Shown here one piece after another: positions 19,927 to 39,830 of a stretch of 40,564 bases of DNA. Source of the DNA: Methanobacteriales archaeon HGW-Methanobacteriales-1 (GTDB lineage: Archaea > Methanobacteriota > Methanobacteria > Methanobacteriales > Methanobacteriaceae). Where the stretch lies: NCBI GenBank assembly GCA_002839705.1, contig PGYO01000015.1:1-40564 (forward strand), in the 5' to 3' direction. The notes beneath the pieces are model-generated. The model did not search any database, had not been told where the DNA came from, and saw only the letters and a program-made list of their open reading frames with translations. Every line of letters begins with the position of its first letter. Positions within the stretch are counted from its first letter, which is position 1. The position numbers and the translations under genes are program-made.

Positions 19927-20184
19927 TGAAAATAACTTTATCAAGAAATATAAATGGCCTTGATTTAATTAAAGGTTTTTAAAATACATGGGTGGTAGAA
20001 CTATAATTCCCTGAAAATTTAATCATAAGAATTCAAGTTTTTAGGAACTATGATAGAATCACTGATTAATAAAAAGAATTCTTTTTTAGAATCTCTATCT
20101 ATAATGTTTGTATTGCGTTTAACTTTAATTATAACAAATTGCTATTTAGTTGATATTAATTTTTATTATTATAATAAAATAAAC

Positions 20185-20192
20185 TATATAAG
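20185..20192 (+). promoter_or_regulatory. TATA box of the beta-helix gene
   Basis: TATATAAG is a near-consensus archaeal box A, 23-30 bases before the ATG at 20215. The transcript should begin at about the start codon, giving a leaderless mRNA. This places the true start at 20215 and not at the earlier in-frame ATG at 20050. Confidence 0.55.
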
Positions 20193-20214
20193 AATCTTTA
20201 TAAAACTATCTATT

Positions 20215-21531
20215 ATGATTGATTTGAAAATAGAATCAAAAATTCTAATATTATTACTTCTTATCTTAACTATTGCTAGTGTGCCGGTTTATGCACAGGA
20301 TTCAATATCTATAAATAATTCAACTTATGGGATAGATTATACACAAAAAACACCTCAGGTAAATACATCTAGCCAAAGGACATATTATATCACTCCATAC
20401 ACCAAACCATGTAATAAGAAGATTTTGAAGTATAATACGTACAATAAATACACTAAAAACTATTATACTATGCTTTCTTACATGCAAAAGTTTGAAAAGT
20501 ATGGTGGCGGAACACTAATTCTAAAAAGAGGAACTTATTACATTTCTAATGCAGTTACTATTCCGTCTAATGTGAATTTAATATTTGAAGATGGGGTTGT
20601 GATTAATAAGGGTACTAAGACCGGAACTAGAAAATATAAAGCGGCTCAGTCCATGTTTCAATTAGTACAACCCAGTAAACTAAAAAAGAAAAATGCTTAT
20701 TCTGGATATAATGGTGTAAAGAATGTCAATATTATTGGCCGGGGTAATGTGGTCATTAATATGAGATATATTAATAAAAGCACGGCGATTATCTGTGGTC
20801 ATGCCAAAAATATCCAAATACAAGGTATCACTTTTAGAAACATGTACACTGGCCATTTCATCGAGGTAGATGCAATCAATGGGATGAAAATTAGTAATTG
20901 TAAATTCATAAGCTCTAAACGTTCAGCTGTGCTTAATGGCGAGGCTATTAACCTGGATATTCCTGACAAGAATACTCAAGGATTTAATAACATCTGGTCT
21001 CGGGCAGATAAGACGCCTAATAATAATATTCTGATAGAGAATAATTTATTTTATGGCCTTGATAGAGCAATAGGGTCTCACAAATACTCTCAATGGTCCA
21101 TAAATGGGAAATATGTCACTAATAAAGGCCAAGTTTATCATAAATGGATTACTATTAGAAATAATAGAATTATCAATATGAGAAGTGATCCAATACATGT
21201 ACTTAACTGGAGAAACGTGGTAATCACCAATAACTACATAGCAAATGTGGTCAAAAACTCTCATTATTACCGGGGAATACTTGCTGGTGGTGCAGTTAAC
21301 TTAACCATTAAGAATAATTACTTTGAGAATATGTATAGACCATTAGAAGTAATGGTTACCAAAAATAATGGTGTAGGCTCCATGTATTCTATTACCTACA
21401 ATTCTCTTACTCGTGAAAATTATGCAGACATAGCCAACAACTATTGCTACAATGTTGTGGAAAGCTATGCTAGGATTTCTTTTGGGTATCGCTATTATGT
21501 TAATATGGTAAAATTAAATCTTTTAACATAA
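20215..21531 (+). CDS. Secreted right-handed beta-helix (pectate lyase-like) protein
   Basis: The N-terminus is a signal peptide: a charged start (MIDLKIESK), a long leucine/isoleucine helix and an SVPVYAQD cleavage-like site near residue 28. The mature part begins with a domain like those before parallel beta-helices (YGGGTLILKRGTYYISNAV, then NVNLIFEDGVVINKG), followed by PbH1-type turns such as NVNIIGRGNVVIN, NIQIQGITFRN and MKISNCKFISS. This fold is usual in polysaccharide lyases, epimerases and methanogen surface proteins. I see no catalytic set clear enough to name a substrate. I start at 20215, not at the in-frame ATG at 20050, because a TATA box lies between them and the signal peptide begins here. 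It is next to the teichoic-acid-like cluster, so it may modify or bind a surface polymer; that is inference. Confidence 0.8.
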   Translation: MIDLKIESKILILLLLILTIASVPVYAQDSISINNSTYGIDYTQKTPQVNTSSQRTYYITPYTKPCNKKILKYNTYNKYTKNYYTMLSYMQKFEKYGGGTLILKRGTYYISNAVTIPSNVNLIFEDGVVINKGTKTGTRKYKAAQSMFQLVQPSKLKKKNAYSGYNGVKNVNIIGRGNVVINMRYINKSTAIICGHAKNIQIQGITFRNMYTGHFIEVDAINGMKISNCKFISSKRSAVLNGEAINLDIPDKNTQGFNNIWSRADKTPNNNILIENNLFYGLDRAIGSHKYSQWSINGKYVTNKGQVYHKWITIRNNRIINMRSDPIHVLNWRNVVITNNYIANVVKNSHYYRGILAGGAVNLTIKNNYFENMYRPLEVMVTKNNGVGSMYSITYNSLTRENYADIANNYCYNVVESYARISFGYRYYVNMVKLNLLT

Positions 21532-21766: not shown

Positions 21767-22738
21767 ATGAGTTTAAAAGTTTCTGTTATTGGGGCGGGCG
21801 GATTAGGAACCGCCATTGCTCAACTTATTTCAGTTAATGTGGATTATGTTTATTTGTATGCTAGACGCAAAGAAGTTGCAGAAGAAATATCTAAAACTGG
21901 ATATAACAGTGAATATTATCCTAATTTAAAATTAGCTAGTAATATTATTCCCATAACTGATTTTAATTCTATAAGGTCCTGTGATATTGTATTTTTATGT
22001 GTTCCATCATCTGGAATTAGATCCACTTTAAAAGAAGTATCTAAACACATAAATGATGATTGTATATTGGTAAGCACAGCTAAAGGGATAGAATATCCTT
22101 CATTAAAGACTATGAGTGGAATAATAGCCGAATATTTTGATAGATCCCCTGTAGTTTTTTCTGGACCTAATTTTGCTTTTGAAATTGCCCTTTCACTATT
22201 TACTGCAGCAAACATATCTTCTAATAATTCAAAGAATTTAGATTTAGTAAAAAAAGTTTTAAACACAGATAAGTTTAATGTTAAAATTAATGAGGATATC
22301 ATTGGAACTGAATGCTGTGGAGTAATTAAAAATATAAATGCTATTGCTTATGGTATTTGTGAGGGGATGAATATCAATGATAATGCTCGTTATGCTGTTT
22401 TAACTAAAGGATTCAATGAAACTAAGGATATAATTGGGGCCATGGGTGGTAAACGACTGACGGTGGACGATTATTGTGGATTTGGTGATCTGGTATTAAC
22501 TTCCACATCACGTGAAAGTAGAAATCATACTCTGGGAATGTTATATGGTCAGAGAATAGTTGTTGATGAAAAGGCATCCGGAATACTATTTGAAGGTAAG
22601 AACTCCATAATGGCTATCAAAGAGCTTTGTGATAAGAATTCCGTAAACAGTGTCATTGTTAATTTTGTATATGATGTTATGGTAAACCTTATACCTCCTA
22701 AAATAGCATTTAAAAAATTATGGAATGAAATGGATTAA
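21767..22738 (+). CDS. gpsA: GpsA-like NAD(P)-dependent glycerol-3-phosphate dehydrogenase
   Basis: This enzyme should interconvert dihydroxyacetone phosphate and sn-glycerol-3-phosphate. The N-terminal Rossmann motif is GAGGLGTA (9-16). Further family hallmarks are STAKGIE (K106), SGPNFAFE (132-139), the catalytic lysine region GVIKNINAIAYG (K188), and GDLVLTSTSRESRNHTLG (240-257), close to the GDLxLTCTxxxSRN box of bacterial GpsA. The 323 residues fit the family. Archaeal lipids use the opposite enantiomer made by G1P dehydrogenase, so this gene is unlikely to serve lipid synthesis. Its place directly before a nucleotidyltransferase (52-base gap) and glycerophosphotransferases suggests it supplies CDP-glycerol synthesis. 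A good GAGGCGATTTA site precedes the ATG. A related dehydrogenase with a different substrate is possible. Confidence 0.82.
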   Translation: MSLKVSVIGAGGLGTAIAQLISVNVDYVYLYARRKEVAEEISKTGYNSEYYPNLKLASNIIPITDFNSIRSCDIVFLCVPSSGIRSTLKEVSKHINDDCILVSTAKGIEYPSLKTMSGIIAEYFDRSPVVFSGPNFAFEIALSLFTAANISSNNSKNLDLVKKVLNTDKFNVKINEDIIGTECCGVIKNINAIAYGICEGMNINDNARYAVLTKGFNETKDIIGAMGGKRLTVDDYCGFGDLVLTSTSRESRNHTLGMLYGQRIVVDEKASGILFEGKNSIMAIKELCDKNSVNSVIVNFVYDVMVNLIPPKIAFKKLWNEMD

Positions 22739-22790
22739 TTTATAGTATTAAACTTATTTAAATAATATAACATTTTTATCAGGTGATTTA

Positions 22791-23513
22791 ATGATAGCAA
22801 TAATATTAGCCGCAGGAACAGGCACTAGATTAATGCCACTAACTAAAGATATTCCTAAGCCGTTACTTGAACTTGGTGATATAACTTTACTGGAACGTAT
22901 GGTGGTAAATTGCATATCTGGGGGAATTAGTGAGTTTATCATAGTTGTAGGACACAAAAAAGAAAGAGTAATGGAAAAAATTGATTATTTAGAAGATAAG
23001 TATTCTGTTAAAATATCTACGGTAGAAAATAAGAGATATTCTGAAACGAACACGTCTTGTTCTGTAAAATTAGCATCTAGTGATCTTGATGATGATATAA
23101 TGATCATTAATGGAGATAATGTGGTTGATGAATTAATAATTTCTGGATTAATTTCCATCAATAAAACAGCTCTGGTAGTAGATAACTATAAAGAACTAAA
23201 TGACGAGTCTTTCAAGTTAAGAATTGAAGACAATGAAATAATGGAAATTGGAAAGAATATTAATATCAAAACATCTTCTGGAGAGTTTATAGGAATATCC
23301 AAAGTATCTAAAGATGATTTACCTTTGTTTAATTCTATTTTAGAGGAATTGGTGGCCGAAGATGTTCAAAACTACTATGATTTGGCTTATAAGAATTTGA
23401 GTAAAAAATCTAATATTGATTATTTCTATACCAATGGATTAAAATGGACAGAAATAGATGATAAAATTGATTGGGAGTATGCTCATACTCTTATTGAAGA
23501 ATTTGATGGCTAG
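22791..23513 (+). CDS. LicC-like nucleotidyltransferase, probable CTP:glycerol-phosphate cytidylyltransferase
   Basis: This is a sugar/alcohol-phosphate nucleotidyltransferase of the GT-A-like NTP transferase fold. The N-terminal signature is LAAGTGTRLMPLTKDIPKPL (6-25), which binds the nucleotide and pyrophosphate leaving group, with K23 conserved. The metal-binding aspartate lies in IINGDNVVDE (D109), and a WTEIDDKIDWEYA segment near the end carries the second acidic site typical of LicC-like enzymes. The closest functional class by pattern is choline-phosphate or glycerol-phosphate cytidylyltransferase. Given its position behind gpsA and ahead of TagF-like genes, activation of sn-glycerol-3-phosphate to CDP-glycerol is the best guess, replacing the unrelated TagD family. 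The ATG at 22791 follows CAGGTGATTTA. Confidence 0.78.
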   Translation: MIAIILAAGTGTRLMPLTKDIPKPLLELGDITLLERMVVNCISGGISEFIIVVGHKKERVMEKIDYLEDKYSVKISTVENKRYSETNTSCSVKLASSDLDDDIMIINGDNVVDELIISGLISINKTALVVDNYKELNDESFKLRIEDNEIMEIGKNINIKTSSGEFIGISKVSKDDLPLFNSILEELVAEDVQNYYDLAYKNLSKKSNIDYFYTNGLKWTEIDDKIDWEYAHTLIEEFDG

Positions 23514-23599
23514 ATATAATTATATTCAATTTAAACTGTTAATATTGCCTTAATGTTGATTTCATTATAGATATATTATTAAATAATCAAGTTAGTGGA

Positions 23600-25105
23600 T
23601 TATAGACTTTCAAACAAATCTATCCATTGTTTTTTTACTTTTTCACTGGAAACATCTAAAACAGTATCTCGGATATTACTAAATTCTCCTTTTTTTAACT
23701 TTTTTTTACATTCAATTATTTTATCTGCAAATTCTTCAATATTTCTTGGTGCAATTAAATACCCATTTTTTCCATTAATAATCATATTTTTTGGTCCATA
23801 TTTCATATCAAAGGATATGCAAGGCACATTGAGGGCAATGCTTTCCATTATGGTTAATGGAAATGCTTCAGTGTCACTGGTTAATATGCTCATTCCAGAT
23901 TTTTGAATTTCTTGATTTACATTGTAGGTAAATCCTTTAAAATTAAAATTTTTAAGGCCATATTCTTCAACTTTAGCATATACATCTTCTTCCAATTGAT
24001 CATTGTATCCAAATCCATAAAAATCTAGATACAAATCCGGATCTTTATCCGAGATTATTTTCATAATTTCAATGGCCATATCCACTCTTTTTTTAGCATC
24101 AATACGTGAGATCATGATTATTCTATTGATATCTTTTTCAATATTCTCATTCAAAGCTGAAAAATCATGGAAATTAGGGATTACTTCTATCTCCAAATCA
24201 AATACACTTTCAATATCCTCTTTTTGTTGGCCAGTTAAGACCACTATCTTATCAAATTTTAATTTTTGAAACAAATCCTTAAAATTAGGTTGAATTTCAT
24301 TTTTATCATTATATGGTTCGGATAAATGAGTGTTGTGGAGTGATGCTATTTTTTTTATGTTGGGATCTAAATTTGAAATTATATAATCTAAACTTTTCCC
24401 CTTTTCAGGGATATTTTTTAGATTTTCACTAAATAAACTGAAAATAATCGGATTTTCAAATTTTTGCACTATTTGGTTTATTATATCTATGTAAAATTCG
24501 CTCATGCCCCTATATTCTTTCTCTGTGTTGAAATTAATAACACGCAACCAATTTCCAGTGTTTTCATCAATCCATACAGTTAAAAAGCATTTTTTATTTT
24601 TATCCACATGTCGATGCATGGTGGCATTGTTGTTTCTATATTCCACATATCTAGCTAAATTTCCTTTAAAGTCGTATTCTTCTCTAAGATATAATATTCT
24701 GCCCTTTTTCAGATAATCAATAAATTCAAGCCGGCCATTGTTGCGATTCATATTTTTGGCCATTACATAGGTACCATTGTCATAAAACCTGTAATTTTTC
24801 CCAGCTTTGATTTTTACTAATTTCTTTTCTTTAACTATTTCTTTAATTCCCAATTTCTTTTTTTTAAATGAAGGATTTGGATTTAAGTATTGGATAACAT
24901 TTATAACTTCGACTTCTTTGGCTAGTTTTCCAGCATTTTTCATATTTATTACTACTTCCGCCAAATGTTTTTGATAAGATAATACTAAAATAACTATTTT
25001 ATAGGTTTTTTCCTGACTCAAAAGGTTGGCCTTTTGAACAGCCGCTTTTACTAATCCCCCGCGCTTCTCAGCCAGAGTATTAACTGGAATAATTATTGTT
25101 TTCAT
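23600..25105 (-). CDS. TagE/GtfA-like glycosyltransferase (GT4)
   Basis: This 501-residue protein matches the TagE/GtfA group, which adds glucose or other sugars to poly(glycerol-phosphate) chains or to serine-rich proteins. The N-terminal GT-B half begins TIIIPVNTLAEKRGGLVKA with the GG loop. It is interrupted by a beta-meander insert at about 95-190 (YRFYDNGTYVMAKN, then FIDYLKKGRILYLREEYDF), the mark of this subgroup. The C-terminal half has RIDAKKR (about 334-340), contacting the donor phosphate, and the E-x7-E motif EAFPLTIME (413-421). It follows the 1039-residue glycerophosphotransferase on the same strand with a 105-base gap, so the two are probably co-transcribed. Sugar and acceptor cannot be read from the sequence. 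Confidence 0.85.
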   Translation of the reverse strand: MKTIIIPVNTLAEKRGGLVKAAVQKANLLSQEKTYKIVILVLSYQKHLAEVVINMKNAGKLAKEVEVINVIQYLNPNPSFKKKKLGIKEIVKEKKLVKIKAGKNYRFYDNGTYVMAKNMNRNNGRLEFIDYLKKGRILYLREEYDFKGNLARYVEYRNNNATMHRHVDKNKKCFLTVWIDENTGNWLRVINFNTEKEYRGMSEFYIDIINQIVQKFENPIIFSLFSENLKNIPEKGKSLDYIISNLDPNIKKIASLHNTHLSEPYNDKNEIQPNFKDLFQKLKFDKIVVLTGQQKEDIESVFDLEIEVIPNFHDFSALNENIEKDINRIIMISRIDAKKRVDMAIEIMKIISDKDPDLYLDFYGFGYNDQLEEDVYAKVEEYGLKNFNFKGFTYNVNQEIQKSGMSILTSDTEAFPLTIMESIALNVPCISFDMKYGPKNMIINGKNGYLIAPRNIEEFADKIIECKKKLKKGEFSNIRDTVLDVSSEKVKKQWIDLFESL

Positions 25106-25210
25106 AGTATCATTCTTTAATTTTTCATATTATCCAATCAAATCTGAATTAGAAATATTTAGGCTATCTATTAAGAATTTAAATACTTTTTATATTAAAT
25201 GGTACTTTTA

Positions 25211-28200
25211 TTAGTCTAAAAGGACCTTTTCTACAATTCTTTTTGCTGCATTACCATCGTCTAGTGGAGCATATTTTTGCTTGAAATTGGATAATTTTGA
25301 TTTATACTTTATTTCAATATCTTCAATATTGTCTATGCTTTCAAATAGATCTTTTTGATTTTTAACAATCGCGCCGGGAACTTCTTTTTCATAATCTAAG
25401 TATGATCCCCGAATATCATTTTGATATTCCTCTAAATCATAAGCATAAAATAATATGGGCCGTTCTAAAACAGCATAATCAAACATTACGGATGAATAAT
25501 CTGTGATTAGTATGTCTGTCATTAGAAATAGATCTTGTATATCTGGATATGCAGATACATTTATCACGCTTTTTTTGTATTCTTCAGGTATTTCAATATT
25601 AGAATTCATAGTAACGTGCATACGCATTAAAAGAACATATTCTTCACCAAATCTTTTATTAAATTCTGCAAAATCTATTTTTATATCTGACTCAAATTTA
25701 TTCTCAACTTTCTTGGTGTCTCGAAATGTGGGTGCATATAAAATTATTTTTTTAGAACTAGGTATAGAATAGTTATTTCTAATTTTACTAATTATTAAGT
25801 CTTTTTCAGGATTATTAACCAAAATATCATTACGAGGATATCCTTCTTCTAAAATAGGGCCATCATATCTAAATGCAGTTCGGAAATGCTTTGTGGCGTA
25901 ACTATTTTGTGAAATCAAATAGTTCCATTGGTTTTTTGCTTTCTCAACCCGCTTTATGTAACCTTTTTCTCGGCCGTATATCTCTTTAAGATCAAATAAC
26001 ATCTTTTTTAGGGGAGTACCATGCCATGTTTGTAGATAACTTGTTTTCTTTCTTTTGCTGAGATATGTGGGGAAATTTTGGTTATTTACCCAGTACTTTG
26101 ATGTGGCTAAATAATAATAATACTCTGGTGATAACCGCTTAACGACTTTAGTGGTCAGTGGATGAATGAAAGAAGTTTTATCATAGGACCATATACATTC
26201 TGCATCTGGTTTAATTTTTAATAATTTTTCATATATCACTCGAGGAGAATCAGAATATTGTACTCCCACCCCACTTTCGAAAACGTATCTTTCTTTTAAA
26301 GGTAATATCTTGAATATTTTATAAAGCACCTTCATTGTGGGGAAATAAAAATTACTTCTTCTAAAGAAGTTGTAACCTTTCCTATATTTCTCTGCAGACC
26401 TAATTTTTTGAGCTATTGACAGTTTAACTTTGTAATTCTGGGCTGCATTATAAATACGCTCGCAATTTTTAGCATCTTTATATTTTAATAATTTATTAAC
26501 TCTTTTTTGATTTTCAGAAGATATTTGGAAATTATTCTGGGTAATATCCTGGAATTTTTTAATCAAATCCTCTTCATTGCTGACTATATCTCCAGGCAAT
26601 TCCCTTTCTAAATCCAGATGCGAACCTTCTTTTCCCAGAAACCTTTCTTGATCAAATTGATAATAAATCACGGGTTTATCTAAAAAAGCAAAATCAAAAG
26701 CAACACTGGAGTAATCTGTAATCATTACCCTACTTTCTTTTATTAGTTTTTGAACATCAATTTCACCCTGCAAGACCATTTTAACATCATGATTGCTGAA
26801 AAATGAACTGTATTGCTGCATGTTAGGGTGCAAATAAAAGACTATTTCTATTTCATTTTCTTTGCAATGATCTAAAAATGTTTTATTAGAAATTAAATTT
26901 TGATATTTTTTGAAATACTCTGATTCTAAAAATAGATCTATGTTTTGGAGCCAGTCCCGCCAGGTGGGAATGATAAGTACTTGTTTTTTCAGCTTAAGGT
27001 CATTGGCAAATAATGAATCAAATCTAGACAAACCAGTTAATTTAACCTGTTCTTCTGGAAACTCTAAATCTTCCATAACGATTTGCTTTTCTCTTTCTGT
27101 ACTTACAATAAATATATCTGTATCAAATTGTTCTTTCTGGTTCAAATATATTTTATTAAGGTTTTTTACTCCTAAAACGCCGTGCTGTAGGAAGATTTTT
27201 TTGGCCTTAATTTTAGACAGGAATTCTTTGTTCCGGAGAGGGTACAAGTAATCAATATGGTGTGAACCAAAGAAATGGGTGGCTTTTAAACATGTTTCAA
27301 AGTGCTCTTTTGTTTTAAAATTTATAACATTTCCGAGATGTTTTACATTTTCATATTCTGGGGAATCAAAATCGATTATATAATATGCGTCCTTTTCAGG
27401 ATGGTTCTTTCGAACATATTCAAAAAATGCCTTTCCAGTATCCTGTGCCTTATATGGTCGCTCTCCAATTACCCAAATTTCTTTGTTTTTATCTGGTTTA
27501 ACATGTTTAATGCTTTGGAGAATGTTATTATCAATTCTTTCAATGCGCAATGATATATTTGTCCCGGAAAAAGTAAGATATGGTGAAATAAATAAGGTTT
27601 CTTTGTCATATTTGAGAACGTGATCTTTCATACCTCTTCTTTTTATAAATCTGGTTTTACCAAACCGCATTTTAACTGGCTCTGGAAATCCATCAATATG
27701 GATATATATGAAGAAATCATAAACATCATCTTTTATTTTAGAATCAATTACCAGCTCTGATGTGAGATTAAATGTATCATGATACTTGCCTATTTTTTTA
27801 TAATTTACTGGAAAAATAAATTTTGAGAATTCTCTTCCTTCTAGGCCCATTTCCAATTTTTTAACTGGTAGCAAGTAAGTCATTAGTTTCCCGCTCAGGG
27901 TCACTATTTGACCTTGATAATTAATAGACGATAAATCATTATCAATGTTTAGCTTGTAATCTTTTAAATTCGGGCTTACAACTAGAATAAAGTTTCTATT
28001 ATTTGTTTGATGTGTAATAATATAATTGTCTGCAATTTTTTTCACAGGACTACTTAAAATCCGGAATCTTTTAAATTTAGCAAAATTAGTAAGTTCTTGC
28101 TGCCCTTTTTTATTAATAAAAGAAAAAAAGAAGCTAATTATCCCAGTTTTACCTTCTTTAAATACAGAATTAGGTAAATTAAATGTATAATATTCATCCT

Positions 28201-28330
28201 TTTTGATCACATCAAAGGATTTTTTTTCTCCAAAAATATCAACAATTATATCTTGGACTTTAATCTCTTTGGCAACCTTGAATTTGAGCAATAAATCATC
28301 AGTATAATCAATAATTAATTCATCTTTCAT
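25211..28330 (-). CDS. Double-domain CDP-glycerol glycerophosphotransferase (TagF-like)
   Basis: The protein carries two complete glycerophosphotransferase (PF04464-type) modules in one chain. An N-terminal beta-rich region (1-280) has no clear family. Module A (about 285-620) has QHGVLGVKNL (His about 383), LHPNM (His 501) and ITDYSSVAFDFA (about 537-548). Module B (about 670-1039) has TWHGTPLKK (His about 770), RMHVTM (His about 905) and ITDYSSVMFDYA (about 943-954). The paired histidines and the DYSS box match the catalytic and CDP-binding sites known from bacterial TagF. Bacterial TagF normally has one such module with a helical N-terminus, so this looks like a fusion that might add two kinds of unit or do priming and elongation. 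No signal or membrane helix is seen. A TTTATAAA box lies about 60 bases upstream on the minus strand. Confidence 0.85.
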   Translation of the reverse strand: MKDELIIDYTDDLLLKFKVAKEIKVQDIIVDIFGEKKSFDVIKKDEYYTFNLPNSVFKEGKTGIISFFFSFINKKGQQELTNFAKFKRFRILSSPVKKIADNYIITHQTNNRNFILVVSPNLKDYKLNIDNDLSSINYQGQIVTLSGKLMTYLLPVKKLEMGLEGREFSKFIFPVNYKKIGKYHDTFNLTSELVIDSKIKDDVYDFFIYIHIDGFPEPVKMRFGKTRFIKRRGMKDHVLKYDKETLFISPYLTFSGTNISLRIERIDNNILQSIKHVKPDKNKEIWVIGERPYKAQDTGKAFFEYVRKNHPEKDAYYIIDFDSPEYENVKHLGNVINFKTKEHFETCLKATHFFGSHHIDYLYPLRNKEFLSKIKAKKIFLQHGVLGVKNLNKIYLNQKEQFDTDIFIVSTEREKQIVMEDLEFPEEQVKLTGLSRFDSLFANDLKLKKQVLIIPTWRDWLQNIDLFLESEYFKKYQNLISNKTFLDHCKENEIEIVFYLHPNMQQYSSFFSNHDVKMVLQGEIDVQKLIKESRVMITDYSSVAFDFAFLDKPVIYYQFDQERFLGKEGSHLDLERELPGDIVSNEEDLIKKFQDITQNNFQISSENQKRVNKLLKYKDAKNCERIYNAAQNYKVKLSIAQKIRSAEKYRKGYNFFRRSNFYFPTMKVLYKIFKILPLKERYVFESGVGVQYSDSPRVIYEKLLKIKPDAECIWSYDKTSFIHPLTTKVVKRLSPEYYYYLATSKYWVNNQNFPTYLSKRKKTSYLQTWHGTPLKKMLFDLKEIYGREKGYIKRVEKAKNQWNYLISQNSYATKHFRTAFRYDGPILEEGYPRNDILVNNPEKDLIISKIRNNYSIPSSKKIILYAPTFRDTKKVENKFESDIKIDFAEFNKRFGEEYVLLMRMHVTMNSNIEIPEEYKKSVINVSAYPDIQDLFLMTDILITDYSSVMFDYAVLERPILFYAYDLEEYQNDIRGSYLDYEKEVPGAIVKNQKDLFESIDNIEDIEIKYKSKLSNFKQKYAPLDDGNAAKRIVEKVLLD

Positions 28331-28606
28331 TTTTTATCCCTTTTTATAGTTTGGAGCGTATTTTTGAATTATTAATTAGTTAGAGTTTTATAAATAGTTA
28401 TTTAATAATTAATATTATCTGATGATAACATCTTTATAGATTATGATTCAAGACTTAATAAAATAACTCAAAATATATTTTATAACTTAGTTAATATATT
28501 TAAGTGGGTGTTTTTAATCTATATTTCAAGTAGTTTAGTACTTTAAATGAGTTTTATTTATCTATACCCAGTTAATTCTAATATTTTAATCAGATCAAGT
28601 GGTAAT

Positions 28607-29860
28607 ATGAATGGGAATGTTAAAGAATTTATTAAAAATTATATTATTTTACCAGGATATGCTTTTTTCAGGAAATTACCCATAAAAAAGGATTTAATTA
28701 TCTTTGAAAGTAACATGGGCCGAAATTACAGTGGAAATCCCAAACACATTTATGAAGAGATGATAAGAATTGGTTTGGACACGGAATTGGAATGTATTTG
28801 GGTACTGGAAGATACTAATACTGAAATCCCTGGAAATGCTAAAAAAATAAAAAGGAGCAGATTATCTTACTATTATAATATGGCCAGGGCCAAAATATGG
28901 GTATTTGATACAAGGGACCCACCATCTATCCAAAAAAGAGATCAAGGTTATTATATACAAACTTGGCATGGAACACCTCTTAAAAAGCTGGGAATGGATA
29001 TGGATGATGTTTTCATGGCAGGTAATATGGATATAATTGATTACAAGCGTAATTTATATAATGATACTCAAAAATGGGATTTTTTGCTTTCCCAAAATGA
29101 ATTCTCTACAGAGATATTTAAAAGGGCCTTTGCCTTTGCTGATGAGGGGTCTAAATTCCAGGAGATATGGACTTATGGATACCCTCGAAATGATGTTCTA
29201 AGCAATAATAATAACGAAAAGGACATAAAAAAATTAAAAGAAGATTTGGGTATTCCTAAAGATAAAAAAGTATTGCTTTATGCTCCTACTTGGAGAGACA
29301 ATGAGTTTCACCGTCAAAGCATATATAAATTTGCCACAGCACTAGATTTTGACTTATTAAAGGAAAAACTGGCTGATAATTATGCTATAATTGTCAAATA
29401 TCACTATCTGGTGGTAGAAAATATCGATTGGTCTGATTATGAAGGTTTTATTTATACGTTTGAAGCAGATCAAGATATATCCAATCTTTATCTGGTTTCA
29501 GATATGCTAATCACCGATTATTCATCAGTTATGTTTGATTACTGTATTTTAGATAGGCCCATGTTCTTTTTCATGTATGATTTAGAATCATATCGAGATG
29601 AATTAAGAGGATTCTACTTTGATGTGTTAGAAGAGATACCCGGACCAATTTCCAAAAAAACGGAAGAACTAATTGAAGATATAAAAAATCATGATTTTGA
29701 AATTTATCAATCTAAATACCGAGCTTTTAAGGACAAATACGTCAAATATGATGATGGTAAAGCTTCTAATAGAGTAATTGATAAGATTTTGGAACTTAAA
29801 GACACAGATAAAAATGTAGCTCGCAAAGAACTGGATAAAAATCTATCAAATGAGAATTAG
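28607..29860 (+). CDS. CDP-glycerol glycerophosphotransferase, single domain (copy 1)
   Basis: This is a TagF/TagB-family enzyme, expected to move glycerol-phosphate (or a related polyol-phosphate) from the CDP-activated form to a growing polymer. Key motifs are YIQTWHGTPLKKLGMDMD, IVKYHYLV and ITDYSSVMFDYCILDRPM. I start at the ATG at 28607 because it aligns with the start of the paralogue at 30024 (both 22-23 residues before the LP[IV] segment) and GTGGTAAT precedes it. An in-frame ATG at 28547 would add 20 residues. The N-terminal hydrophobic helix (about 9-22) may touch the membrane, as the bacterial enzymes do. It is divergent from the double-domain gene and first of three paralogues in a row. 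Confidence 0.85.
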   Translation: MNGNVKEFIKNYIILPGYAFFRKLPIKKDLIIFESNMGRNYSGNPKHIYEEMIRIGLDTELECIWVLEDTNTEIPGNAKKIKRSRLSYYYNMARAKIWVFDTRDPPSIQKRDQGYYIQTWHGTPLKKLGMDMDDVFMAGNMDIIDYKRNLYNDTQKWDFLLSQNEFSTEIFKRAFAFADEGSKFQEIWTYGYPRNDVLSNNNNEKDIKKLKEDLGIPKDKKVLLYAPTWRDNEFHRQSIYKFATALDFDLLKEKLADNYAIIVKYHYLVVENIDWSDYEGFIYTFEADQDISNLYLVSDMLITDYSSVMFDYCILDRPMFFFMYDLESYRDELRGFYFDVLEEIPGPISKKTEELIEDIKNHDFEIYQSKYRAFKDKYVKYDDGKASNRVIDKILELKDTDKNVARKELDKNLSNEN

Positions 29861-30023
29861 AATAAAATGAGTGGCCTTAATGTTGAATTGAATATATTTC
29901 CTCCAGTTAAACCATATAGTATTTTAATTCAACAAACTATATTTAAAAATAAAGAACTTATTTAAACTAACTATTAAGTAAATTTATTTTATTAAAAAGG
30001 CATATTTTAATTAAGGAGTTACT

Positions 30024-31253
30024 ATGAAGGCCCGAGAGATCACTAAAAAAGCTATTATTTTTATATATCATATTTTTTTAAAAGTTTTACCGGTGAATAA
30101 TAAGGTGATCTTCTTTGAGAGTAATGTAGGGAGGAATTATTCCAGTAATCCGAAGTATGTTTATGAAGAAATGGTTAAACAGGGATTGGATAAAAAGTTT
30201 AAATGCATATGGTCTGTGGAGGATTTGAGTTTAGAAATCCCTGGGAATGCTAAAAAGGTTAAACGGGCTAGATTATGGTATTTATATTACTTGGCTATAG
30301 CTAAAGTATGGGTATGTGATACGAGACAACCTTCTTTCCTAGTTAAAAGGCTAGAAACTACTTATATTCAACTATGGCACGGCACTCCTCTCAAGAGACT
30401 GGCCATGGATATGGATGTTCTTTCTATGAGTGAAGGAATGGAATTATCAGAATATAAAAAATTATTTCTTGAAAATACTAAAACCTGGGACTATCTAATT
30501 TCACAGAGTGAATACACCACTAAGAAATTCCAGTCTTGCTTTGCATTCGAAAAGGAAATATTAGAAACTGGTTTTCCAAGAAATGACATTTTATTTGATA
30601 AAAATAATGAAGAATCAATAGAATCACTTAAAAAAAATTATAATCTTCCTCTGGATAAGAAAATCATATTATATGCACCCACATGGAGGGATGATGAGTT
30701 TTATGAGAATGGAATATACAAGTTCTCTTTACAAATAGGCCTGGACCTTTTACAAAAAGAACTAGCTGATACTTATATTATCCTAATTAAACTGCATTAT
30801 CTGGTTAAAGACTCACTAGATTGGAGTAAATATGCCGGATTTGTATATGAATGCGATCATTTAGGAGACATACAGGAGCTGTATTTAATCTCTAACTATT
30901 TAATAACAGACTATTCTTCAGTTATGTTTGATTATGCTTTACTCAGAAGGCCTATGCTAATTTATGCCTATGACTATGAAAATTACCGTGATAATCTGAG
31001 AGGGTTCTATTTCGATATATTTGAAGAATTTCCAGGCCCTATAGTTACAGATAGTTATGATTTAATTGAATCTATTAAAAATTATGATTATGTTGAATAT
31101 GAAGAAAAATACAATAAATTCTTAGATAAGTTCACAAGCTTTGATAAGGGCCATGCTTCAGGTTTGATAGTGGATTTGATTTTAGAAAAGGCTAAAGATT
31201 CATCAAAAGGCCTTAAAGAAGATAAAAAATATAAAGAGGCTAATCATGGATAA
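30024..31253 (+). CDS. CDP-glycerol glycerophosphotransferase, single domain (copy 2)
   Basis: This is a close paralogue of the gene at 28607, with the same order of motifs: FFESNVGRNYSSNPKYVYEE, YIQLWHGTPLKRLAMDMD, ILIKLHYLV, and ITDYSSVMFDYALLRRPM. Both proteins share a YxYDxExYRDxLRGFYFD-type segment after the DYSS box, so they come from a tandem duplication. The amphipathic or hydrophobic N-terminus (about 9-22) probably docks at the membrane. The ATG at 30024 has an AAGGAGTTACT site. The gene ends inside the start of the next one (ATGGATAA overlap), implying translational coupling. Confidence 0.87.
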   Translation: MKAREITKKAIIFIYHIFLKVLPVNNKVIFFESNVGRNYSSNPKYVYEEMVKQGLDKKFKCIWSVEDLSLEIPGNAKKVKRARLWYLYYLAIAKVWVCDTRQPSFLVKRLETTYIQLWHGTPLKRLAMDMDVLSMSEGMELSEYKKLFLENTKTWDYLISQSEYTTKKFQSCFAFEKEILETGFPRNDILFDKNNEESIESLKKNYNLPLDKKIILYAPTWRDDEFYENGIYKFSLQIGLDLLQKELADTYIILIKLHYLVKDSLDWSKYAGFVYECDHLGDIQELYLISNYLITDYSSVMFDYALLRRPMLIYAYDYENYRDNLRGFYFDIFEEFPGPIVTDSYDLIESIKNYDYVEYEEKYNKFLDKFTSFDKGHASGLIVDLILEKAKDSSKGLKEDKKYKEANHG

Positions 31254-32412
31254 AGGCGCTTTTTTTAAGATTATTGCCTATGATATAATGGCTCTTTTCT
31301 TTTATTTTAGTTACTTGTTCCCTATAAATTCACAAAAGATACTCCTAATCATGACTCACGATGAAAGCGACGAGGGAAATGTGGGATCAGCAGCCAATTA
31401 TTTTAAGGAAAAAGAGGGTAATTTAATTTTTAAAAGAGTTACTAAAGAAAATTACAACTTTAAAAAGAATAAAAACCTTTTTAAAAATTTATTTCACATG
31501 TTTATTGGTGTACCCTACCACATGGCCACATCTGGGACTATATTCATGGATAATGTTTTTTTACCTTTTTCTTCGGTAAGATTGAAAAAAAATACTCGCC
31601 TGATTCAACTATGGCACGGAACTGGAGCTTTAAAGAAGTTTGGACTGGATAGTGAGGAAGGATGGATACGCGACCGGGCAATAAAAGTTAATGACAATAC
31701 CACCCATTTCATTGTAGCTTCTAAATGGATGAAGGAAGTTTATAAAACTGCATTTGGAGTTACTTATGGAGTAACTGATATCGGATGTCCTAGAACTGAT
31801 TTATTTTTCCATGAAGATCTTCTTAGTGAAAAAAGAGCAGAATTTTTTAGTAGTTTTCCTGCTTTGTCGTCTAAAAAAATTATACTTTATGCTCCGACAT
31901 TTAGAGATGATGAAACTGTGGATGATATAAGTATTAATCTGGATATTCCTGAATTAATGTCCAAACTGGATGATAACCATGTTTTAGGCCTTAGGCTCCA
32001 CCCTCATGTATCAAATAAAGTAGATTTGGATAATATATGTTTACAAGGGCCATATGGGGATAGGATTTTTGATTTCTCACATTATGGCCAATTAAATACC
32101 TTGCTGGTTTGCAGTGATATTTTAATAACGGATTACTCATCTATTATCTACGAATATGCTCTGCTGGGAAAGCAGATGATATTTTACAGCTACGACTTGA
32201 CCAAATTTGAAAAATTAGGCCGAGGATTCTATGATGATTATGAATCCATGGTTCCCGGCCCAGTTGTTTTTAAAACTCAAGAAATTGTGGATGAAATTAA
32301 TAATCCCACGGAATATGACTTAGATGAATTTTTGGCCAAATATTTGGAAAATTGTGATGGGCATGCTAGAGCGAGATTGTATGATTTATTGGCTTTGGAT
32401 GGATGGGGATAA
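31246..32412 (+). CDS. Divergent CDP-glycerol/ribitol glycerophosphotransferase (copy 3)
   Basis: This is a third TagF/TagB-type protein, less similar to the previous two. The N-terminus has a strong hydrophobic helix (about 5-25) and then KILLIMTHDESDEGNVGSA. The first motif is LWHGTGALKKFGLDSEEGW, lacking the proline of WHGTPLKK; the second is LRLHPHVSN, a canonical HP; the third is ITDYSSIIYEYALLGKQM. These changes resemble priming or alternative-polyol transferases more than main-chain TagF. It overlaps copy 2 by eight bases, so both are surely made together. The exact donor is unknown. Confidence 0.84.
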   Translation: MDKGAFFKIIAYDIMALFFYFSYLFPINSQKILLIMTHDESDEGNVGSAANYFKEKEGNLIFKRVTKENYNFKKNKNLFKNLFHMFIGVPYHMATSGTIFMDNVFLPFSSVRLKKNTRLIQLWHGTGALKKFGLDSEEGWIRDRAIKVNDNTTHFIVASKWMKEVYKTAFGVTYGVTDIGCPRTDLFFHEDLLSEKRAEFFSSFPALSSKKIILYAPTFRDDETVDDISINLDIPELMSKLDDNHVLGLRLHPHVSNKVDLDNICLQGPYGDRIFDFSHYGQLNTLLVCSDILITDYSSIIYEYALLGKQMIFYSYDLTKFEKLGRGFYDDYESMVPGPVVFKTQEIVDEINNPTEYDLDEFLAKYLENCDGHARARLYDLLALDGWG

Positions 32413-34680: not shown

Positions 34681-35250
34681 ATGAAAATAACCTGTATCAA
34701 GGGAAGCCCCCGTAAAAATGCTAACAGTTCCATAATTGCTGATAAACTATTAAATCAATTAGAAAGTCCTGAAAATGAAATAAAAACCTTTGAATTGAAT
34801 AAATTAAATTACAAGGGATGTCAAGGGTGTCGAGGATGCTTTACTCGTGTTGAAAAATGCACCATCAATGATGACCTGCAGGATGTTTTAGAATCTGTCA
34901 GAGAATCTGATGTTATGGTGCTGGCCTCTCCGGTGTATTATGGTGATATAACTTCCCAGGCCAAAGCATTTGTGGATAGAACATATTCTTATTATGTACC
35001 TGATTTTTTAACTAATCCTAATCCAAGCAGATTAAACCCCGGAAAGAAGATGGTAATGATTTTATCTCAGGGAAATCCTGACGAAGAAGCTTTTAATGAT
35101 ATTTTTCCTAGATACAGCTACTTCTTCCAGAGACATGCCTTTAATGATAGGTTTTTAATTAGATCTTGTGGTGTGAGGGAAGAAGGAGAAGTTTTAAAAA
35201 GGGAAGATGTACTGCAAAAGGTCAAGAAAGTTGCCGAAGATCTTTTATAA
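34681..35250 (+). CDS. NADPH-dependent FMN reductase / iron-sulfur flavoprotein-like
   Basis: This has the flavodoxin-like fold of the NADPH-dependent FMN reductase family. The N-terminal phosphate loop is KGSPRKNANSS (8-18), binding FMN. It continues to YKGCQGCRGCF (about 48-58), with several cysteines like the cluster-binding region of archaeal iron-sulfur flavoproteins, and then ASPVYYGDITSQAKAFVDR, a family hallmark. The 189-residue length fits. The cysteine spacing (C-x2-C-x2-C plus a later C) suggests a [4Fe-4S] cluster may be held, but this is not certain. It is followed 27 bases later by a flavin reductase-domain gene, so they probably form an operon acting in redox balance or oxygen detoxification. 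Confidence 0.82.
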   Translation: MKITCIKGSPRKNANSSIIADKLLNQLESPENEIKTFELNKLNYKGCQGCRGCFTRVEKCTINDDLQDVLESVRESDVMVLASPVYYGDITSQAKAFVDRTYSYYVPDFLTNPNPSRLNPGKKMVMILSQGNPDEEAFNDIFPRYSYFFQRHAFNDRFLIRSCGVREEGEVLKREDVLQKVKKVAEDLL

Positions 35251-35277
35251 GTTTACAATGGATTTGGAATGATTATT

Positions 35278-35877
35278 ATGAAAAAAAGTCTAGGCCCTAA
35301 GGTATTTGGTTTCCCAGCCCCTGTTTTTATGGTGGGTTCTTATAATGAAAATGCCCAGGCCAATGTAATGAATGCTGCCGCAGCAGGGGCTTGCTGTCTT
35401 TCACCACCTTGTGTTTATGTTTCCCTTAGGGAGGCCACTCGCACTTATCATAATATTATGCGAAATAAAGCTTTTACCATTAGTATACCTTCCCAAGAGC
35501 AAGTTGTTGAAGCGGATTATTTTGGTATGGCTTCGGGTAAGAATGTGGATAAATTTGAAGCAACTGGTTTAACTCCTGTAAACAGTGATTTGGTATATTC
35601 GCCATATGTTAATGAATTTTCAGTGGTCATGGAATGTTTGCTGAAGGAAACGGTTAATTTAGGCTCACACACCATGTTCATTGGAGAAGTTATTGATTTA
35701 AAGGCTGATGAGGATGTAACCACGAAAATCAATGTTAAATCTGATCTGGAGCTTGTTAAAGTAGATTTGGAAAAATCTAAACCATTTATTTATGATTTAT
35801 CTTTAAGGGGTTACTATAAATTGGGTGAAAAGATAGGTAATGGGTTTTCAGATGGTTTGAAATATTTTAAGAAATAA
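35278..35877 (+). CDS. Flavin reductase-domain (FMN-binding) protein
   Basis: This is a flavoredoxin-type protein of the flavin reductase-like domain family. Typical parts are VFGFPAPVFMVGSYNENAQA near the N-terminus, the NAAAAGACCLSPPCVYVSL strand, and the RNKAFTISIPSQEQV and ADYFGMASGKNVDKF segments that surround FMN. The 199 residues match the family. It likely reduces or binds FMN for redox reactions. I start at the ATG at 35278, since GGAATGATT before it resembles the ribosome binding site; an in-frame ATG at 35269 would add three residues. The gene lies 27 bases after the FMN reductase-like gene. Confidence 0.82.
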   Translation: MKKSLGPKVFGFPAPVFMVGSYNENAQANVMNAAAAGACCLSPPCVYVSLREATRTYHNIMRNKAFTISIPSQEQVVEADYFGMASGKNVDKFEATGLTPVNSDLVYSPYVNEFSVVMECLLKETVNLGSHTMFIGEVIDLKADEDVTTKINVKSDLELVKVDLEKSKPFIYDLSLRGYYKLGEKIGNGFSDGLKYFKK

Positions 35878-35947
35878 TTTCAAGACAATACTCTTTATGA
35901 AATTTATAAATAAAAAATAGTGGGATATTGAAAATTGGGTGATTAAT

Positions 35948-36289
35948 ATGCAGGATTCAGAAATTATAATTACAGAAAACGATGTTATTGAGACTCTGGA
36001 CTTATTTACTAAAGTTCCATCTATTTTACTTCGTAGATGGGTCTCTAAAAACTCTAACATGGTTAAATCATTTTCAAATCAGATTGAATCCTATAAAAAT
36101 AAACTATCTCCTCGAGATATGGCCCGTGCAGAAAAAGTAATGGAAATGCCGGTGGAGGAACTTCAAGAAATTTTAAAAAAGGCTTATGTTCGGACGGGTA
36201 AAAACCAGCTAAAAATTCTTGCTGATCCTAAAGCTAGATCATTCATTGATTTAAATCTTCAGGAGGCCAGAAAAGTACTTTTTAATTAA
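35948..36289 (+). CDS. Hypothetical helical protein, 113 aa
   Basis: I do not recognise this protein. It is entirely soluble and mostly helical, with a VIETLDLFTKVPSILLRRWV segment and a basic C-terminal half (RARSFIDL-type ending preceded by KNQLKILADPKA). No metal site is evident. The ATG at 35948 is chosen because GGTGATT, the site most used in this window, lies four bases upstream; the GTG at 35939 is part of that site. It lies between the flavin reductase gene and the HemG-like gene, but has its own ribosome site and a gap of about 70 bases to the former. Confidence 0.72.
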   Translation: MQDSEIIITENDVIETLDLFTKVPSILLRRWVSKNSNMVKSFSNQIESYKNKLSPRDMARAEKVMEMPVEELQEILKKAYVRTGKNQLKILADPKARSFIDLNLQEARKVLFN

Positions 36290-36411: not shown

Positions 36412-36428
36412 TCAAAATAGATCATTAT

Positions 36429-38426: not shown

Positions 38427-39830
38427 CTAATAAGCATTTTGATCAGTAAAACCATTGGTAAATGTAAGGAAAAATATTTTTACATCTAAACTAAGAGTCC
38501 AGTTTTCCACATAATATAAATCATATTCTATTCTCTTCTTTATTGAGGTATCTCCTCTCCAGCCATGAACTTGGGCCCATCCAGTCATGCCTGGTCGAAC
38601 GTGATGTTTAATCATGTAATGGGGTATTTCTTCTCTGAATTTTTCCACAAAAAGAGGACGTTCTGGTCTTGGACCAATAAGACTCATATCTCCTTTTAAT
38701 ATATTAAATAACTGTGGTAATTCATCTATACTAGTTTTTCTTATAAAAGAACCAAATTTAGTTTTCCGCGGGTCGTCTTCCGTGGTCCATTGGGATAATT
38801 CTTCTTTATCAGCCTGTACTTTCATGCTACGAAATTTATACATCTCGAATGTTGCTCTATGTAATCCAACACGTTCCTGTTTGAATATAATTGGTCCCGG
38901 CGAACTTTTTTTAACCATAATTGTGGTGAAAATTAGGAGTGGTGAAAATATTATTATGCCCACTATTGCAAATATAATGTCTGAAAGTCGCTTCAGAGCT
39001 TTATTAAAAGAATTGTCTAGAGGCACGTATCGGATGTTAATAAGTGGGATATTATCGATCATATCTATATATGGTCGTGCAGGGAAATAACGATAGTAGT
39101 CCGGAACAATTTCGGCCTTAACCCCATATTTTTCACAAGTATCAATTATATGTTCCAACAATTTAGAATGGCGAGGAGAAATGGTTATTACGATTCTATC
39201 AACTTGTTTGGTGAGAATAATCTCTTCTAAATCTTCAATTTTTCCTATTACTGGAGAACCGGCTATTTCAGTATTTTTTTCTATTTTATCATCTAAAAAT
39301 CCAATTAATTTGTACCCTACATATTCATTTAGCTTTATTTTACGGGTGAACTTCTCACCAAGATCTCCGGCCCCAACTACTAAAATATATTTAATATTAT
39401 ATCCTTTACTTCGGGCAAATCGCAATGATTTCCTTATAATGACTCTTTCTATTATAGAAAGTATGGTAGAGAATATCGCGAAAATGGCAAGTAGATAACG
39501 GGAATAGTCTGAAAGATCCACTACAAATAATATGGTTACCAGTAGCAATAATCCAATAAAATTGACTTTAATGATGTTAAAAGTTTCAGAACTTATACTT
39601 TTAGTTCTTTGGGGATCATATAATCCAAAAACATAATACAGAATTAGATAATTCGGTAAAATAAAGACTATGGGTAAAACATATATAGAAAATCCCCACC
39701 TATTACCATCAAATCCTAATATGCCTAATTTAAATCGGATAAAATATGCAAAAATCAGTGCTAAGGTGATTACTAGTATATCCATGATAACCAGTATCAT
39801 ATTAAATATTTTCTGGTTTTGTTTAATCAT
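38427..39830 (-). CDS. Polyprenyl-phosphate sugar-1-phosphate transferase (WbaP/WcaJ type)
   Basis: This enzyme starts a surface glycan by moving a sugar-1-phosphate from its nucleotide form to a polyprenyl phosphate in the membrane. The N-terminal third has four transmembrane helices, followed by a Rossmann-like soluble domain (YILVVGAGDLGEKFTRKI, about 148-165). A fifth hydrophobic segment (IIFAIVGIIIFSPLLIFTTI, about 288-307) leads to the catalytic PF02397 domain with FKQERVGLHRATFEMYKFRS, then TSIDELPQLFNILKGDMSLI and GPRPERP. The 467-residue length is typical. The ATG at 39830 has an AAGGTGATTTA site. It may start the polymer of the teichoic-acid-like cluster 6 kb away or another glycan. 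Confidence 0.9.
   Translation of the reverse strand: MIKQNQKIFNMILVIMDILVITLALIFAYFIRFKLGILGFDGNRWGFSIYVLPIVFILPNYLILYYVFGLYDPQRTKSISSETFNIIKVNFIGLLLLVTILFVVDLSDYSRYLLAIFAIFSTILSIIERVIIRKSLRFARSKGYNIKYILVVGAGDLGEKFTRKIKLNEYVGYKLIGFLDDKIEKNTEIAGSPVIGKIEDLEEIILTKQVDRIVITISPRHSKLLEHIIDTCEKYGVKAEIVPDYYRYFPARPYIDMIDNIPLINIRYVPLDNSFNKALKRLSDIIFAIVGIIIFSPLLIFTTIMVKKSSPGPIIFKQERVGLHRATFEMYKFRSMKVQADKEELSQWTTEDDPRKTKFGSFIRKTSIDELPQLFNILKGDMSLIGPRPERPLFVEKFREEIPHYMIKHHVRPGMTGWAQVHGWRGDTSIKKRIEYDLYYVENWTLSLDVKIFFLTFTNGFTDQNAY

What the first reader, a model, noticed from the sequence alone, without database searches (positions are those of the whole stretch)
21767..32412. Teichoic-acid-like polymer synthesis cluster in an archaeon
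Seen: GpsA-like dehydrogenase, LicC-like nucleotidyltransferase, TagE/GtfA-like glycosyltransferase and five glycerophosphotransferase modules in four proteins, all contiguous. Known: in Gram-positive bacteria GpsA, TagD, TagF and TagE make and decorate poly(glycerol-phosphate) wall teichoic acid. Inferred: this methanogen, which likely has a pseudomurein wall, builds an analogous anionic glycerol-phosphate polymer. Polyprenyl-linked start and ABC export genes (TagGH-type) are not in the window, apart from a possible initiator at 38427-39830.
Basis: partly seen in the sequence, partly recalled or inferred. Interest (0 to 1): 0.88.

Follow-up and report, generated by a model that had tools for sequence, protein, structure and literature searches.

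The report
Archaeal teichoic-acid-like polymer gene cluster
A methane-producing archaeon carries a compact set of genes that, judged by sequence, makes an activated form of the bacterial mirror-image of glycerol phosphate and links it into a teichoic-acid-like surface polymer; related genes were noted in 2010, but the chemistry has never been shown and can be tested by comparing two ordinary laboratory strains.

Summary
Window 21767-32412 encodes GpsA, a LicC-fold cytidylyltransferase (NTP), a TarM/SdgB-type GT4 and five PF04464 (TagF) modules in four proteins, all keeping TagF's two catalytic histidines. The genome is archaeal (Methanobacteriales) and also encodes G1P dehydrogenase for lipids.

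What is added here:
- NTP and GpsA travel together: 57 of 57 NTPs whose contig carries a GpsA, 49 directly adjacent.
- Of 83 GpsA copies examined in 151 genomes, 80 lie near one of three alternative cytidylyltransferases (LicC-like, TarI-like, TagD fusion); the other three are at contig edges.
- In the two other families of the order, GpsA, NTP and TagF are all present (9 genomes) or all absent (3). M. thermautotrophicus Delta H has them; M. marburgensis lacks them.
- TagD, TagA and LCP are missing. A TagGH-like exporter lies elsewhere in the genome, and beside TagF in a sister species.

Best reading: a variant pathway DHAP -> sn-G3P -> CDP-glycerol -> glycerol-phosphate polymer. The NTP's substrate and the polymer's structure and anchor are inferred.

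The parts
21767..22738 (+). GpsA: NAD(P)-dependent sn-glycerol-3-phosphate dehydrogenase (323 aa)
   Evidence: PF01210/PF07479; NF000942 262 bits > cut-off 257; best PDB 3k96 8e-42; motifs SxxKG, SGPxxA, KN, GFGD, SRN conserved in relatives
22791..23513 (+). LicC-fold cytidylyltransferase, proposed CTP:glycerol-3-phosphate cytidylyltransferase (240 aa)
   Evidence: PF00483; phmmer PntC, LicC, IPCT; AlphaFold pLDDT 94.7, nearest folds PntC/LicC/IPCT; adjacent to GpsA across the order
23600..25105 (-). GT4 glycosyltransferase of TarM/SdgB type, proposed to glycosylate the polymer (501 aa)
   Evidence: PF00534; PDB SdgB 1.6e-28, TarM 9e-25 over the full length
25211..28330 (-). Double TagF-type protein (1039 aa): TarS_C1-like domain (residues 132-263), then two PF04464 modules
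   Evidence: PF04464 9e-159 with two stretches, PF18674 2e-14; both catalytic His in both modules
28547..29860 (+). TagF1: PF04464 glycerophosphotransferase (437 aa)
   Evidence: PF04464 1e-117; SeTagF 3l7i 1e-91
30024..31253 (+). TagF2: PF04464 glycerophosphotransferase (409 aa)
   Evidence: PF04464 7e-110; same clade as TagF1 and the NTP-linked TagFs of Methanobrevibacter
31246..32412 (+). TagF3: PF04464 glycerophosphotransferase (388 aa), start overlaps the TagF2 stop
   Evidence: PF04464 1e-67; separate orthologous clade in Methanobacteriaceae, SH-aLRT 100
38427..39830 (-). WcaJ-type polyprenyl-phosphate hexose-1-phosphate transferase, possible initiator (467 aa); link to the cluster unproven
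   Evidence: TIGR03023 501 bits > cut-off 410.75; a 64%-identical homologue lies about 0.9 kb from a TagF3-NTP pair in G005 (L115)

Best explanation
The cluster makes and decorates an anionic cell-surface polymer built from sn-glycerol-3-phosphate. (1) GpsA reduces DHAP to sn-glycerol-3-phosphate, the enantiomer that archaeal lipids do not use. (2) The LicC-fold NTP joins it to CTP, giving CDP-glycerol; it replaces TagD. (3) Five PF04464 modules in four proteins transfer glycerol-phosphate as primers, polymerases or alternating transferases. (4) The TarM-type GT4 adds sugar, either as side chain or as part of the repeat. (5) The chain probably starts on a polyprenyl-linked sugar (WcaJ type or a PF00953 enzyme) and leaves by an ABC-2 exporter of TagGH type coded elsewhere; in thermophilic relatives a Wzx flippase is the candidate. 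Shown by sequence: families, active-site residues, linkage, co-occurrence. Inferred: donor, polymer structure, initiation, export, anchoring to the wall.
For: Families and cut-offs. TagF H444/H584 equivalents and TDYSS invariant in all five modules. NTP-GpsA: 57 of 57 NTPs on a contig with GpsA lie within 12 kb, 49 within 300 bp on the same strand; genome co-occurrence 58 both / 2 NTP only / 9 GpsA only / 82 neither, Fisher 2e-29 (genomes not independent). All 60 NTP genomes have PF04464 vs 69/91 others. Families f2+f3: 9 genomes with all three, 3 with none. GpsA otherwise lies by TarI-like (19 copies) or TagD-Gfo (4) cytidylyltransferases, so the shared input is most simply glycerol-3-P. No TagD over cut-off in the own genome. 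Bacterial NTP relatives adjoin PF04464 in 14 loci, with GpsA, Fe-ADH and HAD-IIA neighbours or fusions. EgsA is present separately (519.9 bits > 413). TagH-like ATPase 201 bits and ABC2 permease on C16; TagGH beside three TagF in sister species G140. High wall phosphate in M. ruminantium is reported (PMC2812497).
Against: No biochemistry. The NTP's nearest solved relatives act on AEP, phosphocholine and inositol-1-P, not glycerol-P. In Clostridium sulfidigenes (L147) a true TagD and the NTP share one TagF cluster, and some Methanobrevibacter clusters hold a TagD-Gfo fusion as well as NTP, so NTP may make a second donor there. No TagA, no LCP, no TagD. No PF04464 protein reaches an NCBIfam Tag/Tar equivalog cut-off. 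In some Methanobrevibacter the GpsA-NTP pair is not beside TagF (L106, L107).
Confidence: 0.7

Rival explanations
1. The NTP activates a different phosphorylated alcohol (phosphocholine, aminoethylphosphonate, glycerol-2-phosphate or inositol-phosphate) and the PF04464 enzymes transfer that; GpsA serves another need.
For: Closest solved relatives are PntC, LicC and IPCT. TagD coexists with NTP in Clostridium sulfidigenes and TagD-Gfo with NTP in some Methanobrevibacter. NTP-HAD fusions and Fe-ADH neighbours resemble the pneumococcal gtp1-3 (glycerol-2-phosphate) genes.
Against: Tight GpsA-NTP coupling through three archaeal families, including joint absence. No phosphonate- or choline-making family is among the commonest neighbours of the bacterial NTP relatives (only the top 25 families are listed). 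The own genome has no other candidate found for CDP-glycerol.
Confidence: 0.17
2. The PF04464 enzymes add single or few glycerol-phosphate groups to a glycan or glycoprotein (substitution) rather than building a polymer.
For: Several PF04464 proteins instead of one clear polymerase; the modules fall in several separate places of the tree; none passes a polymerase model cut-off. Many adhesin-like surface proteins exist in the group (PMC2812497).
Against: A tandem two-module protein and an adjacent TarM-type GT4 recall chain-building systems such as Campylobacter HS1.09, where a TagF-like and a TarM-like domain alternate (PMC11924219). M. ruminantium wall phosphate is reported as high as in teichoic-acid walls.
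Confidence: 0.1
3. The polymer is a capsule-type poly(glycosyl-glycerol-phosphate) exported by an ABC or Wzx route and held by lipid, not covalently wall-linked like teichoic acid (a sub-case of the main explanation).
For: WcaJ-type initiator in the window, Wzx in the thermophile operon, no LCP or TagA in the own genome, GT4 of TarM type as in HS1.09.
Against: The TagH-like ATPase of the sister species scores about equally to TagH and galactan-Wzt models, so it does not discriminate; the wall ligase of archaea is unknown and could be a non-LCP enzyme.
Confidence: 0.4
4. The genes are recent passengers or relics from bacteria without a role.
For: TagF1 is about 40% identical to Firmicutes TagF/TarF, and Clostridium sulfidigenes TagF lies next to the archaeal clade.
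Against: All frames are open with catalytic residues intact. The archaeal NTP-linked TagFs form a clade (SH-aLRT 98). A PF04464 gene of M. ruminantium is transcribed and raised by lauric acid (PMC5816558).
Confidence: 0.03

Closest known systems
Poly(glycerol-phosphate) wall teichoic acid pathway (GpsA-TagD-TagB/F-TagE-TagGH, Bacillus/Staphylococcus)
   Same: GpsA, PF04464 transferases with conserved catalytic histidines, a polymer-type GT4, and a TagGH-like ABC pair elsewhere in the genome
   Different: No TagD (LicC-like NTP instead), no TagA, no LCP ligase; archaeal host with G1P lipids; several TagF paralogues; exporter not linked
TagF-like capsule polymerases of Gram-negative bacteria (Cps3D, HS1.09; PMC5974469, PMC11924219)
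   Same: TagF-like module together with a TarM-like GT4; CDP-glycerol donor in HS:1
   Different: There the two activities sit in one polypeptide and CDP-glycerol comes from GCT (HS1.11); here they are separate genes and the cytidylyltransferase is LicC-like
Pneumococcal gtp1-gtp2-gtp3 (glycerol-2-phosphate activation; biochemistry recalled from memory, gene annotation PMC3493582)
   Same: A nucleotidyltransferase (gtp2) activates a glycerol phosphate for a glycerol-phosphotransferase
   Different: Partner here is GpsA (sn-G3P), not a gtp1/gtp3-type dehydrogenase and phosphotransferase; direct homology of gtp2 to this NTP was not tested
Teichoic-acid gene homologues of Methanobrevibacter ruminantium M1 (PMC2812497)
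   Same: Same order; its chromosome carries the GpsA-NTP-TagF group (L098, L099)
   Different: The 2010 paper lists homologues and reports wall phosphate; no pathway, cytidylyltransferase or linkage was discussed in the passages read here

Membership tests
PF04464 glycerophosphotransferases (TagF type) | Pfam domain over the gathering score | tested here: met
   Five modules, 165-394 bits per module vs 22.1
PF04464 glycerophosphotransferases (TagF type) | Catalytic His444 and His584 of S. epidermidis TagF and the TDYSS motif | tested here: met
   Invariant in all modules
PF04464 glycerophosphotransferases (TagF type) | Uses CDP-glycerol | not testable with these tools
   Needs an enzyme assay
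NCBIfam TarF/TarL/TarB equivalogs | Score over the equivalog cut-off | tested here: not met
   Best TarF 372.9 vs 550; TarL and TarB also below
GpsA (NAD(P)-dependent G3P dehydrogenase) | N- and C-terminal domains over cut-off, substrate/catalytic motifs | tested here: met
TagD glycerol-3-phosphate cytidylyltransferase | TIGR01518 over cut-off 165.4 in this genome | tested here: not met
   Own best 35.5 bits; 1 of 151 genomes over the cut-off
LicC/PntC/IPCT group of CTP-using nucleotidyltransferases | Fold and sequence nearest to this group | tested here: met
LicC/PntC/IPCT group of CTP-using nucleotidyltransferases | Acceptor substrate (phosphocholine, AEP or inositol-P) | not testable with these tools
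   Needs an enzyme assay; neighbours argue for glycerol-3-P
Wall teichoic acid pathway | TagO-type polyprenyl-P GlcNAc-1-P transferase | tested here: inconclusive
   Two PF00953 proteins elsewhere in the genome, roles unknown
Wall teichoic acid pathway | TagA (PF03808) | tested here: not met
   No match in the own genome
Wall teichoic acid pathway | TagGH ABC exporter | tested here: inconclusive
   TagH-like 201 bits (cut-off 320) with ABC2 permease on contig C16, unlinked
Wall teichoic acid pathway | LCP ligase (PF03816) | tested here: not met
   None in own genome; 8 of 151 in the order over cut-off
Wall teichoic acid pathway | Covalent attachment to the wall polymer | not testable with these tools
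   Needs wall chemistry
TagE/TarM/GtfA-type GT4 | Full-length similarity to TarM/SdgB | tested here: met
   SdgB 1.6e-28, TarM 9e-25
TagE/TarM/GtfA-type GT4 | GtfA equivalog (TIGR02918) cut-off | tested here: not met
   49 vs 574.6 bits

The most novel reading that the evidence does not exclude
In Methanobacteriales the bacterial-type GpsA is dedicated to surface polymers: these archaea make both mirror-image glycerol phosphates, sn-G1P for lipids and sn-G3P only for CDP-glycerol, which one of three alternative cytidylyltransferases (LicC-like, TarI-like, TagD fusion) activates for TagF- or LicD-type transferases. The LicC-like enzyme would be a new kind of glycerol-3-phosphate cytidylyltransferase and the product the first defined teichoic-acid-like polymer of an archaeon.
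Probability: 0.5. Interest if true: 0.8.

Novelty: new variant of a known kind. Interest (0 to 1): 0.6.

Why it matters
Anionic glycerol-phosphate polymers are treated as a hallmark of Gram-positive bacteria. If archaea with pseudomurein walls make one, two unrelated wall types have converged on the same polymer, probably through gene transfer. It would give the puzzling archaeal GpsA genes a job, show sn-glycerol-3-phosphate in use beside G1P lipids, and offer a surface target in gut and rumen methanogens (phage receptor, immune recognition, methane control). The Delta H versus Marburg pair makes it directly testable.

Tried and rejected
Bacterial contamination of the contig: rejected, archaeal informational genes are on the same contig and base composition is even. 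TagD hidden elsewhere: only a weak 35-bit match in the own genome, of the kind seen in nearly every genome of the order. LCP ligase: absent. Locating export in the window: none; found on C16 instead. Searching bacterial classes by locus handle is not possible; a plasmid search supplied Firmicutes TagFs. The phylum search added only one genome outside the order, so spread in other archaea stays open. The exact species could not be named: the window is a whole 40,564-bp contig of an unnamed 2.57-Mb Methanobacteriales genome.
Full report
OBSERVATION. The listed genes exist at the stated coordinates. Pfam and NCBIfam assign GpsA, an NTP_transferase, a GT4 and five PF04464 modules in four proteins. 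GpsA passes an NCBIfam subfamily cut-off. The best solved match of TagF1 is S. epidermidis TagF at 1e-91. Aligning all five modules with relatives shows that the residues equal to TagF His444 and His584, and the TDYSS motif, are invariant (the His444 position is recognisable because 3l7j carries Asn there). The first stretch of the 1039-aa protein holds a TarS_C1-like domain. Gene spacing is tight, with an 8-bp overlap of TagF2 and TagF3, but the strands alternate in three blocks.

HOST. The contig, which is the whole window, carries MCM, NMD3, an aIF2/5-type factor and a tRNA synthetase, and GC content is even at 29-32%. The genome is placed with 150 others of one order. Contig lengths identify three of these as M. 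ruminantium M1 (2,937,203 bp), M. smithii PS (1,853,160) and M. thermautotrophicus Delta H (1,751,377), by the table in PMC2812497. Another (1,634,695 bp plus a 4,440-bp plasmid) fits M. marburgensis with its 4,439-bp plasmid (PMC3087415). It also has a true glycerol-1-phosphate dehydrogenase on contig C1 (NF002022, 519.9 bits over cut-off 413), so both glycerol-phosphate enantiomers should be made.

THE CYTIDYLYLTRANSFERASE. TagD is absent: the TIGR01518 model finds only a 35-bit match in this genome, as in nearly every genome of the order. The NTP fills the place. Its nearest solved relatives by sequence and by fold (AlphaFold pLDDT 94.7) are CTP enzymes for aminoethylphosphonate (PntC), phosphocholine (LicC) and inositol-1-phosphate. 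This supports CTP use but not which alcohol phosphate.

LINKAGE. I listed GpsA and NTP family members over 151 genomes. Of 65 NTP genes, 57 lie on a contig that also has a GpsA; all 57 are within 12 kb and 49 are within 300 bp on the same strand. Genomes have both (58), NTP only (2), GpsA only (9) or neither (82), Fisher 2e-29 (related genomes make this p-value too strong). All 60 NTP genomes have PF04464 against 69 of 91 others. In the two other families of the order, 9 genomes have GpsA, NTP and PF04464 and 3 have none. M. thermautotrophicus Delta H has all three; M. marburgensis has none.

WHAT GpsA DOES IN THIS ORDER. GpsA copies without a nearby NTP were followed up. Of the 27, 19 lie by a TarI-like (IspD-family) cytidylyltransferase, most with LicD-type transferases nearby; one of these (L222) was checked and passes the NCBIfam D-ribitol-5-phosphate cytidylyltransferase cut-off (285 vs 166 bits). 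Four lie within about 3 kb of a TagD-domain protein fused to a Gfo/Idh oxidoreductase. One (G051:C118) was not fetched. In the remaining three, two GpsA genes stop within about 350 bp of a contig end (G088, G009) and one begins at base 3 of its contig (G030). So 80 of 83 examined copies sit beside or near a CDP-alcohol-forming enzyme. Three different cytidylyltransferase families sharing one partner point to sn-glycerol-3-phosphate as the common substrate. This is the strongest argument found for CDP-glycerol, and it is inference.

BACTERIAL RELATIVES OF NTP. A genome scan found relatives, most at 25-37% identity, in many phyla. In 14 loci one lies by a PF04464 gene: Thermotogaceae, Acetomicrobium, Clostridia, Flavobacteriales, Planctomycetota, Pseudomonas and others. 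Neighbours include Wzx flippases, GTs, Fe-ADH (3), GpsA (2) and HAD-IIA hydrolases (2); NTP-HAD fusions occur. These recall the pneumococcal gtp1-3 genes for glycerol-2-phosphate (annotation in PMC3493582; their biochemistry I know from memory only). A caution: in Clostridium sulfidigenes TagD and NTP sit in one TagF cluster, so NTP may supply a second donor there.

TagF HISTORY. In a tree of 70 modules TagF1 and TagF2 fall with the NTP-linked TagFs of Methanobacteriaceae (SH-aLRT 98), near Clostridium and Bacilli proteins. TagF3 forms another clade shared in the family (100). Thermophile TagFs form a third clade (100), grouped with Thermotogaceae, Bacillota and Acetomicrobium proteins that also lie by NTP genes. 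Acquisition from bacteria more than once is likely; the tree used a quick method and several branches are long.

START, EXPORT, ANCHOR. The window's WcaJ-type enzyme (38427-39830) passes its equivalog cut-off, and a 64% homologue lies about 0.9 kb from a TagF3-NTP pair in G005. In thermophiles NTP and GpsA are followed by a Wzx-type flippase. In this genome a TagH-like ATPase (201 bits, next best 69) with an ABC-2 permease lies on contig C16 among glycosyl- and acyltransferases. In same-genus species G140 a TagGH-type pair adjoins three TagFs and a GT4. TagA and LCP are missing; PF00953 enzymes exist but their roles are unknown.

COMPARISON WITH WHAT IS KNOWN. PMC2812497 reported homologues of teichoic-acid genes in M. 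ruminantium and, citing older chemistry, wall phosphate as high as in teichoic-acid walls. A PF04464 gene of that species is raised by lauric acid (PMC5816558). Phylogenetic work found archaeal GpsA only in Archaeoglobi and Methanobacteria and judged it likely acquired by horizontal transfer (PMC5059525). PMC3087415 suggests that surface-polysaccharide genes may explain wall-sugar and phage-susceptibility differences between Delta H and Marburg. In Campylobacter HS:1 one protein combines a TagF-like and a TarM-like domain (PMC11924219), a good functional parallel to TagF plus GT4 here. In the library searched no paper demonstrating such a polymer in an archaeon turned up.

VERDICT. Real, well supported as a polymer pathway, not new in outline, but a distinct variant with a sharp test at hand.

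Noticed in passing
L222:5776-9200, L246-L260, L112:8058-13173: In many Methanobrevibacter genomes, including M. smithii PS, a second GpsA clade is paired with a TarI-like (D-ribitol-5-P) cytidylyltransferase and LicD/Mf1-type transferases: probably a different CDP-alcohol decoration, in M. smithii beside NeuB-type nonulosonate genes.
   Followed up: partly
L213:8348-13633, L216, L221, L222:10135-13391: TagD domain fused to a Gfo/Idh oxidoreductase, next to LicD and PLP aminotransferase genes and often GpsA: looks like a module for a CDP-activated, possibly amino-polyol, phosphate.
   Followed up: partly
G143 against G148 (L101): M. marburgensis lacks GpsA, NTP and PF04464 while M. thermautotrophicus Delta H has all three: a natural pair for wall chemistry and phage-receptor work.
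   Followed up: partly
L226 (own genome, contig C10 62000-80000): A second surface-glycan locus with a Wzx-like flippase (HfsF-like), a 635-aa protein weakly like PF04464 (45 bits) and several polysaccharide genes.
   Followed up: no
L232 (G140 contig 16): Same-genus species with TagGH-type ABC genes directly beside three TagF proteins and a TarM-like GT4, without GpsA or NTP in the stretch.
   Followed up: partly
L144, L151, L188: LicC-like NTP fused to a HAD-IIA phosphatase-family domain in bacteria, in L151 followed by GpsA: candidate bifunctional glycerol-phosphate activating enzymes.
   Followed up: partly
window 20050-21531: 493-aa protein with a right-handed beta-helix region just upstream of gpsA, possibly a surface protein; link to the cluster unknown.
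   Followed up: no
window 34681-37704: Flavin reductase, FMN-reductase-like and flavodoxin genes followed by a MarR-type regulator, downstream of the cluster; probably unrelated redox genes.
   Followed up: no
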